Virus record (IMG/VR): IMGVR_UViG_3300012017_000234
Coordinates: 1-25,357 of that record
DNA length: 25,357 bases
Direction: 5' to 3' (one strand)
DNA from: a virus
This document shows positions 15,701-25,357 of this stretch, in pieces. Position 1 is the stretch's first letter. Every line of letters starts with the position of its first letter. The notes beneath the pieces were generated by a model, which saw nothing but the letters and a program-made list of their open reading frames with translations, searched no databases and had not been told where the DNA came from. The translations under genes were made by a program, and so were the position numbers.

Positions 15701-15849
15701 TTTTTTTGGGGATTTGTTGAATGTGACAAATAAAGCATAGCATCGCCATGTCTTTTTTGTGCTTCTTTTTTGAGTTTGGTTACAAGTTTCTCATGACCGT
15801 TTGTCATGGGGTTCATGCGACCAAATGATATGACTACAGTATCTTTCAT
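12745..15849 (-). CDS. Giant multidomain protein with cytidylyltransferase-like head
   Basis: This 1034-residue protein starts with a nucleotidyltransferase domain (1 to about 175). FGRMNPMTNGHEKLV is the HIGH-type motif (N17-G-H-E20), VVVGSDRVDDF (93-103) is a core strand, and SGSKMR (139-144) stands in for ISSTxxR. Such domains transfer NMP to NMN, phosphopantetheine or similar. A strongly basic helical stretch follows (190-290). Then come AEAWVLSKITKAADYISSV-like helices near 580-597, a very acidic tract (603-640), SGISYSILKQVYNRGMAAW through TGHRPGTTAQQW (660-691), and a C-terminal module KKFYVYVRKPDGGIKKVTWG to QLGLSGGGNFYW (958-1034) containing C1001 and C1015. These later modules recur in marine phage proteins. 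Substrate and role are unknown; a late or virion protein is inferred from context. Confidence 0.75.
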   Translation of the reverse strand: MKDTVVISFGRMNPMTNGHEKLVTKLKKEAQKRHGDAMLYLSHSTNPQKNPLDFNTKVKFAKKAFGPIVQNSSAKTIIDVAKELTGKYKNLTVVVGSDRVDDFYKLLQTYNNKDYKFDKIEVVSAGERDPDAEGVTGMSGSKMRSFASDNEYEKFKQGVPSKLSDADAKALFTAVRKGMKLDEQIDEAVLGFAQRRQRAARFKRMQQRLLRTRMLQAKRTADPSRLKRRAAKLAYSFIRSRASGGKDYASLSPGEKITIDTRIQKMIPAIRKLAARFVPLARKKDIQRRQSMMMNRNEELNQIFSESFVIEKTKVPQDSQIKGKEGTQPKVYYKGLDKDTKEKRLAHFRKYGPMSDRDPNAYVDAPGDKEAREKGMPQSKHTEKYKRMYGEAVAPQERQKTSRLEQLVRLGLADAKMLSVIKRAVAKLKSGDTMSPQEREATNNLLSTMLDMVTSADALFRMTKTQLQKEERLNEIAYKGNIGMMELAKFFKMADPKQVEMFKKLLVNKDVKRAWSLVAGVTGVKLVGKEFNESYILEKGEYDDYSEIDGLEMAQIEIENVIQDSEDLLQMMDSMDEEPEAWVLSKITKAADYISSVRDYLQFEDDYDYEDAESEYEDDEDEMEVDDYLSSMNSEDFEVDPELKDIFEEIDGLKKKAEKSGISYSILKQVYNRGMAAWQTGHRPGTTAQQWAFARVNSFITKGKGTWGGADSDLAAKAKKSKDTNEAFSKFAEALEWGTDELRKKYADDTPGQSTEIEVADHLKGNNGRDALNRMFELNIDKVKRSHQVNEEQEILDAFAEVSDVSEAFKYHQEENKPLHETVYRVGSEKYFEFWRVARKNYQNGLIENIDPMDKAILEDTDLGEIVEHEGSYVPLDCPMIEEEEMTLWKYNSASGLWKSERKVTPETKDKWLEIFKKDDPKAKFIVSKNKPGAKAHLKEEDEEKNPPLNQPKRGGPKKFYVYVRKPDGGIKKVTWGDTTGLSVKLNDPEARKSFAARHQCSMQKDRTSAAYWACNTPRYAKQLGLSGGGNFYW

Positions 15850-15906
15850 TCTGGAGTTTTCCTTAGACTTATCCGTTTCAGGTTTGCCTTAGCCTAACTG
15901 ATACTT

Positions 15907-15914
15907 TATTTAGT
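15907..15914 (-). promoter_or_regulatory. Possible variant late promoter ACTAAATA
   Basis: The 68-bp gap before the 1034-aa gene contains ACTAAATA on the minus strand, differing from the T4 late octamer TATAAATA at two positions. It is 58 bases before the ATG, nearly the same distance as the exact match before the gene at 9427. The match is weaker than the other two and may be chance in AT-rich sequence. Confidence 0.3.
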
Positions 15915-15917
15915 ATT

Positions 15918-17339
15918 TTAAACATCTATACCAATAACATCGTTTGGAGCATTTGGAGAATTTTTGGATCTTAATGCCAACCATGACGCATATTCTTGTT
16001 CAAAATTTACCAGTGAATAGAAATTGTAGTTTAATGTTTTACCTGTCACTGATGATACTGCATATGCTATGGATTTCTGTGTTAAAACTTGATCATAAAA
16101 CATTTGGTAATAATTGTGTTTTGTGCTTGATGTTTGTTTACTTGCTGACACCAATATTTTTTCACAAAGATATGCCATGTTATATACTGTATTTTTTACA
16201 GGTGTTCCACCAACCTTACTCATCGAAGATTGTATAACTTTTGATGATGCAACGCCTATATCGCCATCAAAAGTAGACATTTCAGTATTGTTTCCAACTT
16301 TTGATATATTCTTTTCTATCGTTTTTAAAATGTTTTCAAATTCATGTACTGTTATAACATTATTTAAAGTGTCATTGATAATTCGTGTAATGTTGGTTCT
16401 GTCATCACGTATTAAATTTAATACTGACATGATTGGAATTCCAAACACGGCTTTTCCTGTGTAAGAATTGTATACATCTAATGCTGATTCAGCTACAATT
16501 TTTGGTCCTTTTTGTTTCTGTTTTAATTGAGAGTTTAAAGAATTGTACCAATCAGTGATATCTTTTTTGTTACTAAACACATCTTTAAATTTTACTGTAT
16601 TGGCTTTAGGACTCTTCACTTTTGACTTGACGCTTATTCTTAAGGCCGATTCTTCAGATTTTTTTTCGGTAGCAGTAATACTAATGTAGTAATCTATTAG
16701 AGGAAAATTTGCTTTCTGAGGTATATAAATTTTAACTTTACTTCTCTTTAAGTCCATATCTTTTGGTATGCCTAATATCTTTCTGATGTCAGCATCATTC
16801 TTTTTTAATAATATAGCAAGTTTCACTGAAGTTAAAACTTCATAAAATTCAGCGGGTATTAAATCTTTTGGTATATCAAAAGGTATTTTTGTTCTTGTAT
16901 CTTTAGCAGTTTCATCTAAAAGATATAAAATTTCTTTTTCAACAGTAGCCTCTAAATCTACACTTTTGATATATTTTTTTACGTTATCAACTATATCATA
17001 AGCATCTAACCAATCGTTAACAATAGAAGGTTTTATGTCAGATGGTTTAAATTTAGCTTTACCCGTTGCAACAGGGTTTGCTTTTATACTTGCTTTAACA
17101 GTGATTTCTAATGGTGCCATCTTTACAGCACCAGTTTTTCCTCCTGATGTCGGCTCAGTATAGGTTGCATTGTAATGCTGAAACATTTTTTGTATCTTTT
17201 TCAGTTCACCCTTTCGATAGGTTCTATCAGCATTATCAACATATACAACTAGGCTTTTCTTGCCATCAAATGATATTTCAGAATATGCTTTACCTAATAA
17301 CGTTTGAACGTCTTTTATCTGAACAGGATTTAGTGCCAT
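15918..17339 (-). CDS. Unrecognised late protein (473 aa)
   Basis: I do not recognise this 473-residue protein with confidence. It has a predicted alpha/beta N-terminus (KKSLVVYVDNADRTYRKGEL, 27-46) and a middle part VKIYIPQKANFPLIDYYISI (202-221), followed by LRISVKSKVKSPKANTVKF (233-251). A helical C-terminal half follows. The middle part is reminiscent of phage proteins in which an aspartate strand is followed by an IS(V/S)K strand, faintly like a PD-(D/E)xK nuclease core, but the expected acidic residue before the lysine is serine, so I do not call a nuclease. The start abuts the stop of the ligase-like 415-aa gene, so the two are co-expressed. The region is notably AT-rich. Confidence 0.7.
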   Translation of the reverse strand: MALNPVQIKDVQTLLGKAYSEISFDGKKSLVVYVDNADRTYRKGELKKIQKMFQHYNATYTEPTSGGKTGAVKMAPLEITVKASIKANPVATGKAKFKPSDIKPSIVNDWLDAYDIVDNVKKYIKSVDLEATVEKEILYLLDETAKDTRTKIPFDIPKDLIPAEFYEVLTSVKLAILLKKNDADIRKILGIPKDMDLKRSKVKIYIPQKANFPLIDYYISITATEKKSEESALRISVKSKVKSPKANTVKFKDVFSNKKDITDWYNSLNSQLKQKQKGPKIVAESALDVYNSYTGKAVFGIPIMSVLNLIRDDRTNITRIINDTLNNVITVHEFENILKTIEKNISKVGNNTEMSTFDGDIGVASSKVIQSSMSKVGGTPVKNTVYNMAYLCEKILVSASKQTSSTKHNYYQMFYDQVLTQKSIAYAVSSVTGKTLNYNFYSLVNFEQEYASWLALRSKNSPNAPNDVIGIDV

Positions 17340-18587
17340 TTATCTCTCCCAACCTTTGATAACATCTGGTGAAAAGTTAGCATAACTAAACCTAAGTCTG
17401 TCAACGATTTTAACTGCACCACCCGACAACTTGTCAATTGCAACATAACCTTCGACGCCAGTGACTTGATAACCAGATTTGGTAAGAAGAAAGGTGTTTA
17501 CACTTTTCACTTCATCGAGTTTTTTGCCCAACATATCTTTAGCTTCCACAATCAAATTCATCAATGTAAAGATATGTTCAAATTGAACTTTATACTTTGG
17601 TGTCATAAATCCTTTAATTGCATTTACTTTGGTTAATGCTTTCTGTTTTGCATCTGGCTTCTTCTTAGCGTTATACTCTGATTCGTAGAATGAATGCAAA
17701 GTCTGTAGCATTTCAGTCACATGACTATGAACGTTTGCTATCTTTTCTTGCCTCTTTACTTTAGAGTTGTTGAATGCTTTAATTTTTGTATTCAACTCTT
17801 CACCAAAACCTGGATAGTCTGAAAGCGAATCAAGAAATCGACCATCAATCGCATTGAATATTTTACCAGCTTGTGATAGAATTTTTGTAACTTCGGCAGT
17901 CTCTTCTTTTGTCATGGACGCTTTGCCTGACACATCTTTATAGTCTGCATTGTCATACCAAACATTCTTAGATTTCTTCATACCTGCAAGAATATTGGTA
18001 CCAAAAACAGCCTTCATATTGTCTAATGTATCACCATCATATCTTGTATGCCATACGATACCCATTTGTGAGTTTCGAATAATTCTAGCCATGTCACTAT
18101 CATAAGGCACGGCATAAACAAGTGTGTTTGGATGAAATGTCGTATACTTTTCACCATCAATTGTTACATTTTTTAGATCACTTTTAGTATACATCAAGTC
18201 ACCTTGAATGACTCCTTTGATACCAATTTCAGGTAGATATTTGAGACATGCTTTGAGTTTGTCTGCCAAATCACCAGACGTGTCCGCATCAATATCCGCG
18301 GCTGTCTTGTAGAGTTTAGGATTTTTGTTGAAGATGCCCTTCTTTGCAACAAAGAATTGGCCGTCCGATGGATCTTGACCAGCAAAAATAGCTGGTGCAC
18401 CATCCCATTTGACTGTTACATTGACTTTGGATTCAGAGTTGCCAGCCAACATATCTCGCAAACTGCGGAGAAAATTGATAGCTTCCCTTGCGCCATAGAC
18501 ACCGCCATTGAGGATGTTATCCTCAATGTGTTCCATGTGAAGATTTTTGCCTGAAGCGGCTTCAGTTACAAAATTTGAAAAGTTCAT
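17340..18587 (-). CDS. Putative nucleotidyltransferase/ligase-like protein (415 aa)
   Basis: This 415-residue protein belongs to a family I recall as conserved but unnamed in marine T4-like phages. It contains four segments in the order expected for covalent nucleotidyltransferases (DNA/RNA ligases, capping enzymes): VTVKWDGAPAIF with K60-W-D-G63 as motif I, KGVIQGDLMY (124-133) as a motif III-like strand, VEGYVAIDK with E379-G-Y-V as motif IV, and AVKIVDR with K393 as motif V. EGYVA is also, as I recall, the motif IV wording of T4 RNA ligase 1. A helical insertion of roughly 150-200 residues separates motifs III and IV, which is longer than usual. It is the first gene behind a late promoter and a start-codon hairpin. 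The ligase relation is inference; the open frame is secure. Confidence 0.75.
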   Translation of the reverse strand: MNFSNFVTEAASGKNLHMEHIEDNILNGGVYGAREAINFLRSLRDMLAGNSESKVNVTVKWDGAPAIFAGQDPSDGQFFVAKKGIFNKNPKLYKTAADIDADTSGDLADKLKACLKYLPEIGIKGVIQGDLMYTKSDLKNVTIDGEKYTTFHPNTLVYAVPYDSDMARIIRNSQMGIVWHTRYDGDTLDNMKAVFGTNILAGMKKSKNVWYDNADYKDVSGKASMTKEETAEVTKILSQAGKIFNAIDGRFLDSLSDYPGFGEELNTKIKAFNNSKVKRQEKIANVHSHVTEMLQTLHSFYESEYNAKKKPDAKQKALTKVNAIKGFMTPKYKVQFEHIFTLMNLIVEAKDMLGKKLDEVKSVNTFLLTKSGYQVTGVEGYVAIDKLSGGAVKIVDRLRFSYANFSPDVIKGWER

Positions 18588-18616
18588 AGTCCATTCTTGT
18601 GCCTTGAATGGACTAT
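18586..18616. repeat. 11-bp perfect hairpin covering the start codon of the ligase-like gene
   Basis: Arms of 11 bp (18606-18616 and 18586-18596; minus-strand ATAGTCCATTC and GAATGGACTAT) are perfect reverse complements around a 9-base loop, AAGGCACAA. The 3' arm includes the A and U of the AUG at 18587, and the only Shine-Dalgarno-like AAGG is in the loop. The 5' arm overlaps the late-promoter octamer and the expected late start point, so only readthrough RNA from upstream would contain both arms. Confidence 0.8.
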
Positions 18617-18621
18617 TTATA
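18614..18621 (-). promoter_or_regulatory. T4-type late promoter octamer TATAAATA
   Basis: The minus strand reads TATAAATAGTC, exact for the T4 late -10 element. It lies in the 35-bp gap after the stop of the 116-aa early-type gene and 27 bases before the ATG of the 415-aa gene. It marks the boundary between the early-type operon and the late block. Expected initiation is near 18607, inside the upstream hairpin arm. Confidence 0.65.
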
Positions 18622-18622
18622 A

Positions 18623-18973
18623 TTATCGGCGCATTGTTGCCTGATCTTTTGCTTCCTCTTGAGAGAAAATAGGCACTGCATTGGACTTATGGAGTGTACC
18701 AATGCCAATCATCTTGTCACCAGTGTACACTTTACCTTCTACTGGCTTAGTGCATGTAGCTGGCAGTGTTGTAATGTGACTTGGATACTGTGGTAAATCA
18801 CGGACATAAGTCTTCGGTGGCTTGTATGGTACACGCTTGATGGATTTCATGGTTGGTTTGTTCTTGTCTAGAAATGCTTGCCATTCTGCTTGAAGTTCAG
18901 CATCCTTTCGCTTTGCGTCAGCGGAAGCCCACTTCTTCTTACCCTTGAATTTGGTAGGTGAATGTATAATCAT
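18623..18973 (-). CDS. Conserved phage hypothetical protein (116 aa)
   Basis: This 116-residue protein is basic and proline-rich in its first half (TKFKGKKKWASADAKRKDAE, then KRVPYKPPKTYVRDLPQYPS). It ends with TGDKMIGIGTLHKSNAVPIF followed by SQEEAKDQATMRR. I recall this C-terminal signature in a broad unnamed family of phages with small basic proteins; the function is unknown. No cysteine motif, signal or membrane segment is present apart from one cysteine. The ATG overlaps the stop of a 42-aa membrane gene (ATGA). It is the last gene before the late promoter at 18.62 kb, so it probably closes the early operon begun at 19.6 kb. Confidence 0.75.
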   Translation of the reverse strand: MIIHSPTKFKGKKKWASADAKRKDAELQAEWQAFLDKNKPTMKSIKRVPYKPPKTYVRDLPQYPSHITTLPATCTKPVEGKVYTGDKMIGIGTLHKSNAVPIFSQEEAKDQATMRR

Positions 18974-19098
18974 AGTAGATATAGCGTTATCAAAAGTACA
19001 ACAGGTGGTAGAAACATCTCAGTAAGCGTCATATTTGCGGCTGAATAAGCATTCCACAATCGTCGGACAATCTCATACCGAATAATATATTCTATCAT
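18970..19098 (-). CDS. 42-aa membrane microprotein
   Basis: A 42-codon frame lies exactly between two genes. Its ATG overlaps the stop of the 107-aa gene (AATGA), and its own TGA overlaps the ATG of the 116-aa gene (ATGA), so it fills what would otherwise be a 121-bp gap. The protein is MIEYIIRYEIVRRLWNAYSA, then a short polar stretch, then a hydrophobic end MFLPPVVLLITLYLL. That is a cytoplasmic basic head with a C-terminal membrane segment of about 14-15 residues, preceded by a proline pair. I do not recognise a family. Tight coupling on both sides is the main evidence that it is real. A membrane-acting early protein, perhaps affecting the host envelope, is a guess. Confidence 0.65.
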   Translation of the reverse strand: MIEYIIRYEIVRRLWNAYSAANMTLTEMFLPPVVLLITLYLL

Positions 19099-19418
19099 TT
19101 TAGCACAATCATAGCAAGTAAAACACTCTGAAAGAAGAAACCAATACCGTTGCTAAAAAGGTACAATCTATCTCTTACGATTGTGGATCTGATGAAAAAA
19201 AGGAGAAGCCCTCCCCATACCATCAGAACCATGCTCAAAGGTGGAAGATTTGCACTTTCACCTTTAATGACTGCATAAGTTGTTGGTAAAGTTGCAGCAT
19301 GGATCATAACCAAGCCAATCCAACCACAAAGTTCACCGAACTTTTCGTAAATGAATAGGCATCCATCCTTGATTTTTTCGGAGTACTGATGAAAAATGTT
19401 TTTAATTTCTGTAATCAT
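19095..19418 (-). CDS. Small integral membrane protein (107 aa)
   Basis: This 107-residue protein has a charged amphipathic N-terminus (about 1-27) and then three hydrophobic segments: about 31-50 (LCGWIGLVMIHAATLPTTYA), 60-76 (LSMVLMVWGGLLLFFI) and 88-106 (NGIGFFFQSVLLAMIVLK). It is therefore probably a three-pass inner-membrane protein. No lysis or transport motif is recognisable. It starts two bases after the stop of the 47-aa gene and overlaps the 42-aa gene, so it is part of the short operon driven by the consensus promoter at 19.6 kb. Expression early in infection is inferred from that promoter; its function is unknown. Confidence 0.72.
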   Translation of the reverse strand: MITEIKNIFHQYSEKIKDGCLFIYEKFGELCGWIGLVMIHAATLPTTYAVIKGESANLPPLSMVLMVWGGLLLFFIRSTIVRDRLYLFSNGIGFFFQSVLLAMIVLK

Positions 19419-19420
19419 AT

Positions 19421-19564
19421 TTAATGAATTGTTTCGCCAGAAGGCGGAATGAGAGCGTCAATTTCTTCGCTCATGGTTTCTAAAAAGAGATCCAAATCAC
19501 CGTGGTCAATCACGGATAAAATAAACTCACGGAAGAATTCAATCAATTGTTCATTGCTAGTCAT
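19421..19564 (-). CDS. Small acidic protein (47 aa)
   Basis: I place the start at the ATG at 19564, giving 47 residues (MTSNEQLIEFFREFILSVID and on to IPPSGETIH), because AAAGGAAC lies five to eight bases before it. The longer in-frame start at 19618 would overlap the promoter and lacks a ribosome site. The protein is acidic with a hydrophobic-acidic heptad look (LIEFFREFILSVIDHGDLDL) and is probably a single helical hairpin. It has no known family that I recognise. It is the first gene after the perfect sigma70-like promoter and should therefore be highly and early transcribed. Small acidic early phage proteins are often host-binding inhibitors, but nothing in the sequence proves that here. 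Confidence 0.6.
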   Translation of the reverse strand: MTSNEQLIEFFREFILSVIDHGDLDLFLETMSEEIDALIPPSGETIH

Positions 19565-19586
19565 AAAGTTCCTTTCATTGAATACT

Positions 19587-19808
19587 TCAATTATAGACGG
19601 ATGTATAAGCCTTGTCAAGCGTGTTGTTTTTACGCAACACTTCTTGGATTAGATCCTTGTCCAACATTCGCATGAAACCATCTTCACGGAATTTACATAT
19701 GGCTACAATTTGTTGTTTATAAACAACATAGTATGTGCCTTTCACAAGGAACATTTCTGCTCCGGTGCAAGCACTGTACCCTACTCGGTGTAATGGATTG
19801 AATGTCAT
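19587..19808 (-). CDS. Small hypothetical protein (73 aa)
   Basis: This 73-residue protein follows the helicase gene with a 20-base gap, and TAGGTAAC precedes its ATG. Residues 14-45 ([20 protein letters not shown] then [10 protein letters not shown]) look like a short beta sheet. The C-terminal part [20 protein letters not shown] looks helical. It has two cysteines but no zinc motif. I do not recognise the family. The last 30 bases double as the strong promoter of the next operon, so the coding sequence here is constrained by two functions. Confidence 0.65.
19590..19618 (-). promoter_or_regulatory. Perfect consensus sigma70-like promoter
   Basis: The minus strand has TTGACA (19618-19613), a 17-bp spacer and TATAAT (19595-19590), matching the bacterial sigma70 consensus at all 12 positions. 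It lies in the 3' end of the 73-aa gene: TATAAT supplies that gene's last two codons (Tyr-Asn) directly before its TGA. The expected start is near 19583, about 20 bases before the 47-aa gene. It fits a strong early promoter. Confidence 0.8.
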
Positions 19809-19828
19809 GGTTACCTATCTAGTCAATT

Positions 19829-21217
19829 TTACATCTTGAAACCGTCAAATTTTGACGTCCTCTTGCCCGTTGGTGTGCCGTCAAATGCTGGTTTGTCTTG
19901 CTGGCCGTTGTCCATCAAACCATCCTGAGCCACCTGTTCTACATCATACAGTTTCATCTTCGCCCTGTCAACCCCTATGACAAACCTTTTATTTGTTGTA
20001 GGATCGCTATACCGGTTCTTTAACTGCTTCACCATGATCTGGTTTAGGTCGGCTAGTTCTTCCGTCGATATCAAAGCAAACATCAAATCAGCGGTGGCTG
20101 GCAGACCAAAGGACTCGGAAGTATCAGTCAAGTCTACATCGGAGTTATCGTAGCCACCTCTGGTAGTCTGAGTTGCGGAAATGACCGGTAGCTTCATCTC
20201 CACCGCTAGGCCGCGGAGTTCTTCGGCAATCGCTTTCACGTATGTATAGGAATTTACGTTCGCTCCTTGCTTGATCCTTGCAGAGGAGCATATATTCAGG
20301 TAGTCAATATAGATGATATCTGGTATAAATTGCCGTTTGAGTTTGAGTTCATTTAGCAAATGCTTGAAATGAGAAACATTCGCAGTTGCAGTTGGATATT
20401 CTTTGATAATGAGTTTGCCAGTCGTTTTGGATCTCAGTCTGTCAATCTTACGCAGGTAGGACTCTTTAGGCAGCGTCACCAGATTGTCCAGGTCTATGTT
20501 GAGTAGGTTAGCATCAATTCGTTCGGCAATGCGCTCCTCGGCCATTTCCAGCGTGATATACAGCACATTCTTGCCAAGTGTAAGATTAGCGGCAGCACAA
20601 TGGCACATAAACAACGATTTACCGACGCCAGTGCCAGCCAGAATGATATTCAGTGTCTTTTCTGGCAAACCACCCTTTGTGATCCGATTCAGGTAGTCTA
20701 AGTCAAATGGTATTCGCTGTTCTACTTTATGATAAAACTCGTACCGTGGATCGGCATCATCGAGGAAATCATGACCGATATGATTATCGAAAGCAACTGA
20801 TAAAGCATCAGCAAGAAGAGTAGGAATGCTCCCTTTGTCCAGTGTGCCTTTATTACTTGCGTCAAGGATCTGGATACTCTGCATGATAGCATTGTAGACT
20901 GCTTTGTCTTTACAAAACTCTTCAGCAGCATCAATGAGCCACTTAGTGTCGGAAGTTTCTTTGTTCTCAGTAATCTCATCTAATTTTTGTACCGTTTCTT
21001 TATGAAGTGATTCTGTTAGATTTCTATTATTGATCTCAATGACCAATGCTTCGTATGTAGGCAAAGTGTTATACTTTGTGACATACTCATTGATTTGATT
21101 GAAGAGTGTTTTATCAGCAGCATCGTGAAAGTATTCACTCTTCAGAAATGGTAAAGTCTTTCTTGTAAAATCTTCATCTAGCAGTAGATGTTTAAGTATC
21201 TTGCTTTCGATCCGCAT
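19829..21217 (-). CDS. 41: Replicative DNA helicase, T4 gp41-like (DnaB family)
   Basis: This protein of about 462 residues is the replicative 5'-3' helicase that would act as a hexamer with the primase encoded at 4690-5703. The N-domain (1-150) aligns in style with T4 gp41, including EYFHDAADKTLFNQINEYV and ALSVAFDNHIGHDFLDD. The RecA-like domain has Walker A GTGVGKS (195-201), the LEMAEERIAERIDANLL stretch, and Walker B IIYIDYLN (301-308). A DnaB motif 3/4-like region follows (ISATQTTRGGYD, then LPATADLMFALI). I prefer the ATG at 21217 because it has a GAGAG-type ribosome site and matches the family start; an ATG ten codons upstream is also open. The start overlaps the 101-aa gene by 26 bp. 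Confidence 0.93.
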   Translation of the reverse strand: MRIESKILKHLLLDEDFTRKTLPFLKSEYFHDAADKTLFNQINEYVTKYNTLPTYEALVIEINNRNLTESLHKETVQKLDEITENKETSDTKWLIDAAEEFCKDKAVYNAIMQSIQILDASNKGTLDKGSIPTLLADALSVAFDNHIGHDFLDDADPRYEFYHKVEQRIPFDLDYLNRITKGGLPEKTLNIILAGTGVGKSLFMCHCAAANLTLGKNVLYITLEMAEERIAERIDANLLNIDLDNLVTLPKESYLRKIDRLRSKTTGKLIIKEYPTATANVSHFKHLLNELKLKRQFIPDIIYIDYLNICSSARIKQGANVNSYTYVKAIAEELRGLAVEMKLPVISATQTTRGGYDNSDVDLTDTSESFGLPATADLMFALISTEELADLNQIMVKQLKNRYSDPTTNKRFVIGVDRAKMKLYDVEQVAQDGLMDNGQQDKPAFDGTPTGKRTSKFDGFKM

Positions 21218-21497
21218 TCTCTTTTTCTCTCTCAATTTGTGATTCAAGAATTGATAATACTACATCACCCATCATCTTGTCAAAGTCTTTTTTGTCCGAT
21301 TCATTGAGAGTTTTTTCATAATCACCGATTGTATTGTACTCAAAATGAAGTATCGCTTCTTCACCAGTTTCTTCTACATTCATTACACCAAAATAAAATT
21401 TAACACCATCATGCACGCCGCTAATCAATTCTAAAACTGCGGTATTGGCTACGTTATGGTCGTAATCGGTAATTTTGTAGTCAACATTAATCTTCAT
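21192..21497 (-). CDS. Small acidic protein between uvsX and helicase (101 aa)
   Basis: The best start is the ATG at 21497, which lies in the last codons of uvsX (11-bp overlap) and has GAAGAAGAG upstream; longer frames would extend into uvsX coding. The 101-residue protein begins [20 protein letters not shown], has an alternating beta pattern through [20 protein letters not shown], and an acidic helical end ([20 protein letters not shown]). I recall an unnamed small gene in this position in T4-like marine phages; T4 itself has gene 40 between uvsX and 41, but I see no clear similarity to it. Coupling to both replication genes suggests an accessory role in recombination or helicase loading; this is inference. 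Confidence 0.7.
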
Positions 21498-22539
21498 GCT
21501 CTTCTTCCTCAGGCGGTTGTTCAAATTGACCATACAAGAATTCTTTCTTGCATACTTCATCAATCATATCCAGGAGTTCTTTCGTCCAGTATTTTTCTGG
21601 TTGATCGTTGATTGATTTACCGAAGACTTTTGTGCCGTCCGGTAATTCATATCGTGTGGATACTTTCTTGATAATGTTATACTTTTCTGCAATGTCAAGG
21701 AGTCCGTAATATCTATCCAACCCTTTGTCGTAGGTAATTTTGACTTCCACATCTTTATTCTCCTTAGTCAATCGGCTTTTATACAACCTAGCCCTTACAA
21801 TGTTACCAATCACTTCAGTTCCATCTTTCTCTTTCTTCTTTGAAAGATATACAATCGTTGATGCGGTATACTTTAGCCCAGAACCACCAGACATTTCTTT
21901 AGTTGGCACATAAGCGCCAACAACATCATACACATGATTCGTTACAATTAATGGTACGTTAATTTTAGCAAGTTTCAAATTCAGTACACGGAATGTAGCC
22001 TTAATCAATTGTGATTTAGTCATGTCTCGTGTTTCTTTACCCTCCGAACTATCTTCCATTTCTTTGGTTGAAGATAGTTGGCCTTGAGAATCAAGCACCA
22101 TCATCATCGGTTTACGTTTCTCTTTTGATTGCGCTGCATACTTATCAATGATTTGCAATGCGGTATGTCTAAACTTTTGAATGGTATCTGGTTCTGATAT
22201 AACGATTCGTTTGGTATCAATGCCTCTTGATTCCATCATATGTTTTGTAACTGCTGCTTCAGTGTCAAAGTAAATCACACCACCTTCTGGATTGTCATCA
22301 AGAAATCGTTTGACTACACCCAGAACAAAGAATGTTTTACCTGTAGCAGATTCACCAGCAAATGCTGTTACTTTGTTGTTAGGTACGCCGCCGTATATAC
22401 TGCCACTGAGTAAAGCGTTAAGTGCATAAGACCCGGTGTCGATGCAACCTGTATACTCAGCACTAGCACCTCCATCAGCAAGAATTTTAGTGTCTTCATC
22501 TTTTAACTGCTCCACTAATGATGTAAAAAAATTGCTCAT
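21487..22539 (-). CDS. uvsX: UvsX RecA-like recombinase
   Basis: This 350-residue protein is the phage strand-exchange recombinase, which drives recombination-dependent replication and repair. Walker A is GESATGKT (62-69), the catalytic-glutamate region is IYFDTEAA (89-96), and Walker B is [11 protein letters not shown] (145-155). DNA-binding-loop-like sequences follow ([34 protein letters not shown]), with the conserved [12 protein letters not shown] before them. The acidic tail [11 protein letters not shown] matches the acidic C-termini of UvsX and RecA. The length is slightly below T4 UvsX (about 390 aa). GGAGAACGT precedes the ATG. It is followed by an overlapping 101-aa gene and the gp41 helicase, the T4 gene order. 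Confidence 0.95.
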
Positions 22540-22550
22540 ACGTTCTCCAT

Positions 22551-23135
22551 TTATCTAAATTTATATCTTGGTGATGCGTGGTACATTATCATGTAAGTTG
22601 GTATATCATTTTTCTTTTCGAGAAATGATTTCATAGACTCTGAAGGAAATAGTATACAACTATTTGACTTCAATTGCAATGTTTTTTGTTCTTTATTTTC
22701 GGCCACAAATGCGATACCATTTATGTCCATACTATTGGTTGATATGACAATACATGCCGTAAGCGATTTGTAATTTTCTCTATGGTAATCTCTGCTCCAT
22801 CCTTTATGTTTTTTAATGACTTCTATATGACTCTCAGCGGTTAGACTGTAGAACATGAATGCACTATCGTTTGTATTTTTATAAATTTCACGCATGTCAT
22901 TGGACCACATCCGATTTTCAATTATTCGTGCGATGGTGCATATTTCTTCAACATCTTTATTCTCATATAACCATATTGAGTTGTATGTTTTATTAGGCTT
23001 TTCGTTCAGTTGTTGATTGTGACTGAACATTGAATCAACTTTCAAGAGATTGGTTTCGATCAATGAAAGGTCAGGCGAACTAAAAAAGTTTTCTATTATA
23101 ACATGTGTAAATGGTTTTTCGTAGTGATGTATCAC
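22551..23135 (-). CDS. Degenerate 2OG-oxygenase paralog
   Basis: This 194-residue protein is a tandem paralog of the gene upstream: [20 protein letters not shown] (70-89) lines up with DTIENLVWSDNMRNIYKQVK of its neighbour, and [11 protein letters not shown] with DNTLIAFPSEC. The catalytic positions have changed: HKD becomes H118-R-E120, the distal histidine becomes K169, and the 2OG-binding arginine position is T180. It therefore probably cannot bind iron and 2OG in the usual way. It keeps an intact open frame and uses a GTG start overlapping the previous stop (GTGA). A pseudoenzyme partner of the active copy is plausible; a shifted metal site cannot be excluded. Confidence 0.7.
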
Positions 23136-23743
23136 GATTTTAATGGCACCGGTGACATGTAAGATGAAAAATATTGAATTGAATATCTTGTGCAGTGATT
23201 TTCTATTCTGGTTACTCTATGCACACATTCGGAAGGAAACGCAATCAACGTATTGTCACGATATTTAATTTCTTTAATTATATTGTTATGAATTAGCTGA
23301 AAATTACCACCGTGAACATCATCTTCAGACAACCAGAAGTTCAGTGTTATGCTTTTAAGCAAGTCTTTGTGCCATTCATATACTGAATCTTTTTGATATT
23401 TTGATATCAGAATTTGACTATAATTAGTATAATCATAAAACAAAAATAAAGAATCTTTAACTTGTTTATAAATGTTTCTCATGTTATCTGACCATACAAG
23501 ATTCTCTATAGTGTCTATGATAATATTTGAACTTTCAATATCTCTGTTAACATAGGGCCAAAAATTGTAATTTCTTTTTATGTCAGGATTTACCAAACTG
23601 CTTTTACCGTCGTTATAGTCACCCACATAAAATTTATCATCCAACTTTTTAAATTCATTCAGTAGCAAAGTTCTTTGATCCTGAGTAAATATATCATAGA
23701 AGATAACATGAACAATAGGATCATAATGTATGTCATACCACAT
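23132..23743 (-). CDS. 2OG-Fe(II) oxygenase
   Basis: This 203-residue protein carries the complete 2OG-dioxygenase triad: H125-K-D127 in VYEWHKDLLKSITLNFWLSE, the distal H175 in LIAFPSECVHRVTRI, and the cosubstrate arginine R186 in CTRYSIQYF. The segment DDVHGGNFQL (141-150) is the typical GG strand before the core's second half. The start is the ATG at 23743 with GGAG six bases upstream; an upstream TTG start would overlap the previous gene. It resembles phage P4H-like or PKHD-type hydroxylases. It sits in the replication region between a membrane protein and its degenerate paralog, and overlaps the latter by four bases. The substrate is unknown; nucleic acid, nucleotide or protein are all possible. 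Confidence 0.82.
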   Translation of the reverse strand: MWYDIHYDPIVHVIFYDIFTQDQRTLLLNEFKKLDDKFYVGDYNDGKSSLVNPDIKRNYNFWPYVNRDIESSNIIIDTIENLVWSDNMRNIYKQVKDSLFLFYDYTNYSQILISKYQKDSVYEWHKDLLKSITLNFWLSEDDVHGGNFQLIHNNIIKEIKYRDNTLIAFPSECVHRVTRIENHCTRYSIQYFSSYMSPVPLKS

Positions 23744-23744
23744 A

Positions 23745-24485
23745 CTAGTCTCCAAATTTTGTAACGTTTTTTAGTTTTTCTTCATCCATTGCTATTGGTT
23801 CAATTGTTGTCACACCAGAATTTATAATTTTCAACGTGTGATTTGCAGCAATCAATAATAGAATGGCTAGGGGATCAAATACACATATTAACACAATAAT
23901 GATCCATTGTACAGACTTTTCTATCGTGTCAAAATCATTCTTACCATATACCAATTCAGCAACATATCTAATCGCACCAATTTCAGCATTGCCTTTGTTC
24001 TTTGCTTCACGGAGTGGTAGAATTTCTTTCGTTAATACCTCAATTTTATTTTGCGATTCGGTGATCTGTCTCTCCAACTTTTGGTTGGGTTGAGCATAGC
24101 CTTCAGACTGCTTGAGTAAAATCGCCAATCTATTTTTTTCAATAGATAGTCGTTCGTTAAGATTGTCGATTCTAGTAGTATTAGTAACATAGTCCACGCC
24201 TGAACCAGAATGAGACTGAGACAAGTAACCAAAAATACCAAGGCTAGTAATAATACTGAGAATGACAACAGTAGTAGTAAAATAAATCCGTAAAGTGATG
24301 TGAATACTATACCAATAACGATAGAGAAAAGATGCTGTAACCAATTTACCAATTTCAAGTGAGCCTCCCATAATTGCTATTGCAATTGGACTTGCTGTAA
24401 AGATTGATATCAATCCTACAATGGAAAAGTATGCTGCGACCGCTGATATTCCTACAGCGGTAAAGAATAGAAGAAGTGTAAACAT
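23745..24485 (-). CDS. Membrane protein with central coiled coil (246 aa)
   Basis: This 246-residue protein has hydrophobic segments at about 2-40 (probably two passes: TLLLFFTAVGISAVAAYFSI and IFTASPIAIAIMGGSL), about 65-90 (YFTTTVVILSIITSLGIFGY), and about 192-215 (IIIVLICVFDPLAILLLIAA). A charged coiled-coil region (about 105-165) lies between them. The motif VFDPLAILLLIAAN is one I recall from unnamed membrane proteins of marine T4-like phages. Function is unknown; a role in the host envelope or in organising replication at the membrane is conceivable. The ATG shares a base with the stop of the upstream 132-aa gene (TAATG), so they are coupled. Confidence 0.75.
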   Translation of the reverse strand: MFTLLLFFTAVGISAVAAYFSIVGLISIFTASPIAIAIMGGSLEIGKLVTASFLYRYWYSIHITLRIYFTTTVVILSIITSLGIFGYLSQSHSGSGVDYVTNTTRIDNLNERLSIEKNRLAILLKQSEGYAQPNQKLERQITESQNKIEVLTKEILPLREAKNKGNAEIGAIRYVAELVYGKNDFDTIEKSVQWIIIVLICVFDPLAILLLIAANHTLKIINSGVTTIEPIAMDEEKLKNVTKFGD

Positions 24486-24883
24486 TATCGTGTCAGTGAC
24501 AATACTTTATCAATCTGCTCTTGAATTTTCTCTTTTCGATTTGGCCAGTAGATATATTCTTTATCAGGGTTCTTCATGAGATTCACTAATAAAGGCATGA
24601 TGAGTTTTTCAAGTTCAACAAGATTACTCTTTACATCATCTTGCATTTGCTTTCGTTCAGCATCAAGTCCTAATTTACCATCATTGTATAGTGATAAAAT
24701 TTGATCCATCTTTGCTTCAATTCTTGCAACTGCTTCATTTGAAGTTGATACAACTTCACGGATGACAGTAGTCTCTAGTGTTTCTTCATTCACGCTTTGC
24801 TTAACTTCGGTTTCATCTACTGCACTGAAACCGAAATCTTCAGCAGTCCTAATTCCCAAATATTCTTGTGGTATGGTACTCAT
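24485..24883 (-). CDS. Conserved coiled-coil hypothetical protein (132 aa)
   Basis: This 132-residue protein has a polar N-terminus (STIPQEYLGIRTAEDFGFSA), a helical coiled-coil middle (about 45-95, including EAVARIEAKMDQILSLYNDG) and a C-terminal tag NPDKEYIYWPNRKEKIQEQI. I recall the KEYIYWPNR tag as a highly conserved ending of an unnamed marine T4-phage family. The ATG overlaps the stop of DNA polymerase (ATGA), so it is made with the replisome. No enzymatic motif is visible. It could be a replication accessory or a partner of the membrane protein that follows; neither is shown by sequence. Confidence 0.75.
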   Translation of the reverse strand: MSTIPQEYLGIRTAEDFGFSAVDETEVKQSVNEETLETTVIREVVSTSNEAVARIEAKMDQILSLYNDGKLGLDAERKQMQDDVKSNLVELEKLIMPLLVNLMKNPDKEYIYWPNRKEKIQEQIDKVLSLTR

Positions 24884-25357
24884 GCGAAAAAACTCTCCAA
24901 TGATGCAACTGGTTCTGTAGTCCAGTTAATGGTTGAAATAATATTACGCAATGGGTCAACAAATGTTTTATCAAACTGTGTATCGTAATCGATATAACTT
25001 TCAACACCAAATTCTTTCGGAAGCACCGTCGGAATAGATAGCACATTCTCTTGAAATGGATTAGGTGTTTTCATGTAGCAGAATTTAATCTTTTCACCTT
25101 CTTTGATTGTCTGATACTTCTTTGTCAGTTTGTGCTTTTCAAGTAGGTGATTATATACGATTGCACCACGAACATGTATCGGTGTACCTTTTGCGTAAAG
25201 ATCCTTTGCATCTCTATATTTAGTCAGTCCAGAAACACCTCGAGGAAATGCAACATCTTCAAATGGTAACATAGAAAACTCTGCTCTAAATTCTGCAATG
25301 AAATCTTGAAGTTCAGACTCATTACCTTTCATTACAATCTTTAGAGCATCTTTAATT
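24880..25357 (-). CDS. 43: DNA polymerase, T4 gp43-like, C-terminal fragment
   Basis: The open frame continues to the right edge without a start, so only the last 158 or so residues of the protein are present. The visible part matches the thumb and C-terminus of T4-type family B polymerase: PFEDVAFPRGVSGLTKYRDA, GTPIHVRGAIVYNHLLEKHK, IKEGEKIKFCYMKTPNPF and EFGVESYIDYDTQFDKTFVD. It ends in ASLESFFA, a sliding-clamp-binding tail like that of T4 gp43. This enzyme replicates the phage genome with helicase, primase and clamp. The exonuclease and palm catalytic residues lie outside the window. An internal methionine at 25332 is not the true start. Confidence 0.93.
   Translation of the reverse strand, partial: IKDALKIVMKGNESELQDFIAEFRAEFSMLPFEDVAFPRGVSGLTKYRDAKDLYAKGTPIHVRGAIVYNHLLEKHKLTKKYQTIKEGEKIKFCYMKTPNPFQENVLSIPTVLPKEFGVESYIDYDTQFDKTFVDPLRNIISTINWTTEPVASLESFFA

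What the first reader, a model, noticed from the sequence alone, without database searches (positions are those of the whole stretch)
18562..18621. Late promoter overlapping a start-codon hairpin: a possible time-of-infection translation switch
A perfect 11-bp inverted repeat places the AU of the start codon in its 3' arm and the only AAGG in its loop. The exact late octamer TATAAATA overlaps its 5' arm. RNA reading through from the early operon upstream would fold and hide the start codon; RNA begun at the late promoter (near 18607) would lack most of the 5' arm and stay open. In T4, genes e, soc and 49 are known to use this layout. A mini-ORF (ATG at 18594, ten codons, out of frame) sits seven bases after the AAGG and overlaps the true start, adding a second possible layer of control.
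Basis: partly seen in the sequence, partly recalled or inferred. Interest (0 to 1): 0.72.

Follow-up and report, generated by a model that had tools for sequence, protein, structure and literature searches.

The report
Late promoter inside a start-codon hairpin
A bacterial virus distantly related to phage T4 seems to keep a late gene silent early in infection by an RNA hairpin over its start, and to free it later by starting a new RNA inside that hairpin; this is the trick T4 uses for its lysis gene, here found on a different gene and conserved across many uncultured phages.

Summary
On the minus strand, TATAAATA (18621-18614) overlaps the 5' arm of a perfect 11-bp hairpin (18616-18586) whose 3' arm holds the AU of the start codon (18587) of a DUF6267 gene. 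It is the window's only perfect repeat of 11 bp or more (0.1 expected). T4 spacing puts the late RNA start near 18608, leaving 3 of 11 pairs. T4 gene e, run through the same calculation, gives nearly the same numbers and layout.

In 55 of 80 related contigs carrying the upstream gene, the same junction has an octamer-embedded hairpin with compensatory changes. In others the hairpin at this spot is followed by a T-run, an intrinsic terminator. Strong sigma-70-type promoters lie upstream in most lineages examined, so readthrough is expected. A 150-kb relative encodes gp55 and has 15 octamers; only this junction has the hairpin.

The time-of-infection switch is therefore well supported by comparison, though no RNA or protein data exist. 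Two claims fail: the loop AAGG and the mini-ORF are not conserved. Beyond the window, GH19 endolysin genes of the same phage group carry a T4-e-like hairpin hiding their Shine-Dalgarno. Verdict: a new member of a known kind.

The parts
18614..18621 (-). late promoter octamer TATAAATA
   Evidence: exact match; conserved as TATAAATA/CATAAATA at this junction in relatives; gp55-like late sigma encoded by three long relatives
18606..18616 (-). hairpin 5' arm ATAGTCCATTC; overlaps the last 3 bases of the octamer
18597..18605 (-). loop AAGGCACAA (AAGG 18605-18602; not conserved)
18586..18596 (-). hairpin 3' arm GAATGGACTAT, holding A and U of the start codon
   Evidence: compensatory changes in relatives
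18607..18609 (-). predicted late RNA start (+1 near 18608), inside the 5' arm
   Evidence: inferred from T4 spacing -13 to -6 (PMC1524935); 3 of 11 pairs remain
17340..18587 (-). DUF6267 gene (415 aa, PF19782, phrog_455), first gene downstream of the switch
   Evidence: the start agrees with homologs' N-termini
18623..18973 (-). upstream 116-aa gene (phrog_27048); its stop codon ends 1 nt before the octamer
19590..19618 (-). perfect sigma-70-type promoter TTGACA-17-TATAAT, about 1 kb upstream, reading into the junction
19829..21247 (-). DnaB-like replicative helicase gene (early/middle class in T4-like phages)
18562..18594 (-). ten-codon out-of-frame mini-ORF; judged a by-product of the stem sequence
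   Evidence: absent in most lineages

Best explanation
This is a T4-gene-e-type switch at an early-to-late junction. RNA begun at sigma-70-type promoters upstream reads through the 116-aa gene into the DUF6267 gene and folds an 11-bp hairpin over its start region, so ribosomes cannot bind. Late in infection, RNA polymerase with the gp55-like late sigma starts at the octamer. The new RNA begins inside the 5' arm, cannot form the hairpin, and is translated from a leader of about 21 nt. Shown by sequence and comparison: octamer, hairpin, overlap, conservation with compensatory changes, upstream promoters, a late sigma in relatives. Inferred: the RNA start, the readthrough, and the block of translation.
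For: Hairpin beyond chance. In the readthrough context the AUG is unpaired with probability 0.20, in the late RNA 0.85. Late leaders show no unusual structure (z -0.3 to -0.7). 55 of 80 contigs with the upstream gene keep an octamer-embedded start hairpin. On 25 distinct sequences, 14 two-sided changes and covariation score 0.350 against 0.197 in shuffles, 0/500, and lower in all slid controls. T4 positive control: the detector's two strongest hits in T4 are upstream of e and soc. T4 e: dG -13.3, 2 of 11 pairs left, stop-to-AUG 37 nt; window: -14.6, 3 of 11, 35 nt. In a 150-kb relative only this one of 15 octamers has it. Strong sigma-70-type promoters upstream; gp55 homologs. Established precedent: PMC3014915, PMC2988022.
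Against: No transcript or protein data. The AUG itself is in the stem only in the window clade; computed AUG accessibility in other lineages is mixed. The late leader has no good Shine-Dalgarno, unlike other late genes of these phages, so late translation is presumed, not shown. Ribosomes ending at the upstream stop could transiently open the 5' arm, although T4 e has the same spacing. A terminator-like site at 19216-19200 could reduce readthrough.
Confidence: 0.77

Rival explanations
1. The hairpin acts mainly on transcription: it is a terminator or attenuator of early readthrough, or the decayed remnant of one, and its overlap with the start codon is incidental.
For: Relatives have the octamer plus a hairpin plus a T-run at the same place (L004, L005, L097, L227, L247, L252), and L235 has T7 directly before the ATG. 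On the DUF6267 tree the no-T-run and terminator states interchange (at least 5 and 3 changes). In the L177 type the stem is followed by a fairly U-rich stretch.
Against: The window has no T-run after the stem, and the terminator scan found nothing there. In lineages without a T-run the stem lies within 0-5 nt of the AUG.
Confidence: 0.15
2. Translational coupling: ribosomes that finish the upstream 116-aa gene melt the 5' arm and restart on the DUF6267 gene, so the hairpin ties the two genes together instead of silencing the second early.
For: The upstream stop (18623) lies 7 nt before the 5' arm, within a ribosome's footprint.
Against: T4 gene e has the same spacing (37 vs 35 nt) and is reported to be repressed about 100-fold (PMC3014915). 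Relatives with a terminator here suggest selection against joint early expression.
Confidence: 0.06
3. The inverted repeat is a DNA-level element (protein-binding operator or recombination hotspot at which genes are inserted) and its RNA fold has no role.
For: Foreign genes sit between the hairpin and the DUF6267 gene in L082, L206, L216 and L221. I-TevI shows that late promoters in such hairpins can also be operators.
Against: Arms change between lineages while pairing is kept, G-U pairs included; a DNA operator would keep its sequence.
Confidence: 0.02

Closest known systems
T4 gene e (lysozyme) leader hairpin with embedded late promoters
   Same: Octamer in the 5' arm, AUG at the 3' end of the stem, +1 inside the 5' arm, similar dG and stop-to-AUG distance (PMC3014915)
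   Different: Gene is DUF6267, not a lysozyme; T4 e hides a strong Shine-Dalgarno, whereas here the start codon region is covered and no good Shine-Dalgarno exists; T4 e has two octamers
T4 soc leader hairpin
   Same: Octamer at the end of the upstream gene, hairpin over the start
   Different: In T4 soc the stem lies further downstream, so more pairs remain in the late RNA by this calculation
I-TevI/II/III, segB and Aeh1 mobE hairpins
   Same: Late promoter placed so that late RNA lacks the inhibitory structure; late gene inside an early/middle transcription unit (PMC2988022)
   Different: Those genes are homing endonucleases; here a conserved phage gene heads a late operon
Intrinsic terminator at the same junction in relatives (L004, L227, L235, L247)
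   Same: Same octamer, same place, hairpin whose 5' arm the late RNA would lose
   Different: T-run after the stem, so it would stop transcription instead of hiding a start codon

Membership tests
T4 e/soc/I-TevI-type late-promoter hairpin switch | Stable hairpin covering Shine-Dalgarno and/or AUG in readthrough RNA | tested here: met
   AU of the AUG in the stem, dG -14.6, z -7.3
T4 e/soc/I-TevI-type late-promoter hairpin switch | T4-type late promoter placed so that late RNA lacks the 5' strand | tested here: met
   Exact octamer overlapping the 5' arm; 3 of 11 pairs left with T4 spacing
T4 e/soc/I-TevI-type late-promoter hairpin switch | Promoter used by a late sigma factor | tested here: inconclusive
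   gp55 homologs in three long relatives; the window fragment itself holds none; use of the promoter not measured
T4 e/soc/I-TevI-type late-promoter hairpin switch | Early/middle transcripts read into the gene | tested here: inconclusive
   Perfect sigma-70-type promoter 1 kb upstream, same strand; no RNA data
T4 e/soc/I-TevI-type late-promoter hairpin switch | Stem kept across relatives by compensatory change | tested here: met
   14 two-sided changes, 0/500 shuffles
T4 e/soc/I-TevI-type late-promoter hairpin switch | Readthrough RNA poorly translated, late RNA well translated | not testable with these tools
   needs toeprint, reporter or infection data
Intrinsic terminator | GC-rich stem followed by a U-tract | tested here: not met
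   TATGAACTTTTC follows; no terminator called here in the window

The most novel reading that the evidence does not exclude
A late promoter embedded in a hairpin is a general insulator of T4-like phages. It blocks early readthrough either by stopping RNA polymerase or by hiding the start codon, evolution swaps one output for the other at the same promoter, and late RNA escapes both because it begins inside the 5' arm.
Probability: 0.5. Interest if true: 0.6.

Novelty: new member of a known kind. Interest (0 to 1): 0.47.

Why it matters
T4's hairpin-gated late genes have looked like a handful of special cases. The same layout here, on an unrelated gene in uncultured phages, kept by compensatory change and exchanged with terminators, suggests a recurring solution to a general problem: how to stop early transcripts from expressing late genes lying downstream. 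The group's GH19 endolysins carry it too, parallel to T4 lysozyme although the enzymes belong to different families, which makes convergent control of lysis timing testable.

Tried and rejected
Mini-ORF as a conserved regulator: rejected, absent in most lineages and explained by the stem sequence. AAGG as the Shine-Dalgarno: rejected as a conserved feature; here it is 14 nt from the AUG. Terminator in the window: no T-run. Known RNA family: Rfam finds none in 15800-25357. Nearest relative L001 (93% identical gene) seemed to lack the hairpin; it lies on the same contig as L082, where another gene is inserted between the hairpin and the DUF6267 gene. Structure of the DUF6267 product: the model is middling (pLDDT 71) and the PDB fold search gave nothing credible; a ligase-like KWDG motif reading is untested. 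Isolates Melnitz, C48C1 and HTVC008M: no strong octamer hairpin, so the trait is not general in T4-like marine phages. Literature searches found no earlier report of this hairpin in these phages or of DUF6267, in open-access papers only.

Full report
What is there. The window is a 25,357-bp IMG/VR virus record with T4-like genes on the minus strand: UvsX- and DnaB-like proteins upstream, then small genes, then a 415-aa DUF6267 gene (PF19782, phrog_455), a 473-aa gene, and a 1034-aa protein with a cytidylyltransferase-like domain. At the start of the DUF6267 gene the minus strand reads TTATAAATAGTCCATTCAAGGCACAAGAATGGACTATGAAC. The octamer is at 18621-18614, the hairpin arms at 18616-18606 and 18596-18586, and the AUG at 18587.

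Chance. It is the only perfect inverted repeat of 11 bp or more with a loop of 3-15 in the window; 0.1 are expected under a first-order model. Folding energy is -14.6 kcal/mol with z -7.3; in 101 nt of context the same hairpin forms, z -4.1. The octamer count in the window is what chance gives, so its role must rest on other evidence.

Late promoter. In T4 the octamer lies at -13 to -6 (PMC1524935), which puts +1 near 18608. A 150-kb relative (G001, the contig of L112) has 14 octamers on one strand and 1 on the other; many precede genes with AAGGAG leaders and no hairpin. G001, G002 and G004 all encode a protein 53-60% identical to Melnitz gp55. The five bases after the octamer are 26% G+C in ordinary late promoters of these genomes, but 60% in the window (GTCCA) and in L177 (GGTCT). 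T4 late promoters are AT-rich there (PMC2988020), so the stem appears to override a promoter preference.

Conservation. The upstream 116-aa gene was used to find the same junction. Of 80 contigs, 55 carry an octamer-embedded start hairpin and 6 an octamer-embedded terminator; most of the rest have an unrelated gene next. Stems differ: GUCCAUUC/GAAUGGAC in the window and L083 (L082 with a G-U), GGUCU/AGACC in L177 and relatives, GUCCAUCG/CGGUGGAC in L217, GUCUAUC/GAUAGAC in L229. On an alignment of 25 distinct junctions, 86.7% of cells pair; 14 cells have two-sided changes; the covariation score is 0.350 against 0.197 in shuffles (0/500 as high), and it drops in every slid control. The sequences are related, so this count is not a count of events.

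Terminator exchange. In L004, L005, L225, L227, L247 and L252 the hairpin is followed by T5-T7 and the AUG lies farther on; in L235 a T7 run sits directly before the AUG. A maximum-likelihood tree of 44 DUF6267 proteins puts all hairpin-bearing junctions in one supported clade (100/96). The start-hairpin state needs at least 5 changes and the terminator state at least 3. In both states the late RNA would lose most of the 5' arm. Strong sigma-70-type promoters lie 289-1447 nt upstream on the same strand in most of these lineages (17 of 18 sequences tested; L002, whose locus has little upstream sequence, gave none), including a perfect TTGACA-17-TATAAT in the window. So early readthrough into the junction is expected, and both states would block its effect.

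Comparison with T4. With the same code, the two strongest octamer-embedded hairpins in T4 are those upstream of e and soc. T4 e: dG -13.3, 2 of 11 pairs left in late RNA, stop-to-AUG 37 nt. Window: dG -14.6, 3 of 11, 35 nt. The T4 mechanism is documented for e, soc, 49 and I-TevI (PMC3014915; PMC2988022). Melnitz, C48C1 and HTVC008M show no strong case.

What does not hold. The AAGG and the mini-ORF are confined to the window's clade or partly so: L177-type junctions have neither, and L002's mini-ORF has two codons. The paired AUG is also clade-specific; the shared feature is a hairpin ending 0-5 nt before the AUG with the late start inside its 5' arm. Computed AUG accessibility is therefore mixed across lineages, and the block would act through the ribosome's footprint.

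Beyond the window. In G004 a second strong case lies before a GH19 endolysin (PF00182). In about 50 related contigs the endolysin leader has TATAAATA or TGCTAAATA plus a hairpin hiding AGGAG or GGGAG, for example TATAAATACTCTTCGTA-atcacaa-TACGAGGAGTATTTTATG in L406 and GCTAAATACTCCTATGA-caa-TCATAGGAGATAGCGATG in L412. T4 lysozyme belongs to a different glycosidase family (GH24; own knowledge), so the same control seems to have arisen on unrelated lysins.

Status of each step. Shown by sequence: octamer, hairpin, overlap, conservation, covariation, upstream promoter matches, gp55 in relatives. Inferred: the +1, early readthrough, and translation control. No RNA or protein measurement exists for any of these phages here.

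Noticed in passing
L396:4820-4868 (G004), L378 (G001), L403-L454: GH19 endolysin genes of related phages carry a T4-e-type late-promoter hairpin that hides the Shine-Dalgarno; T4's lysozyme is of another family, so this looks convergent.
   Followed up: partly
L002:901-2003: The DUF6267 gene of an 87% identical relative is split by an intein at KWDG|(A/S)PA: N-part (weak PF14890 match), a free-standing ORF with its own TATAAATA and AAGGAG, then a C-part ending HN|S. It resembles the fractured split-intein genes described from ocean metagenomes (own knowledge).
   Followed up: partly
17340-18587 (protein): DUF6267 has invariant KWDG and later QGD and VEGYVAI motifs reminiscent of covalent nucleotidyltransferases (ligases); fold search did not confirm it.
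   Followed up: partly
18506-18528: A second 10-bp perfect hairpin (ATTGAGGATAAC-type) lies in the coding sequence about 60 nt after the start codon; not seen in more distant relatives, probably coding coincidence.
   Followed up: no
L056:99-135, L066:553-584, L008:1017-1057: Other genes in T4-like contigs show octamer-embedded hairpins near their start codons, two with AGAGG in the loop.
   Followed up: no
L082, L206, L216, L221: Unrelated genes are inserted between the octamer-hairpin and the DUF6267 gene, so this junction may be a gene-insertion hotspot.
   Followed up: no
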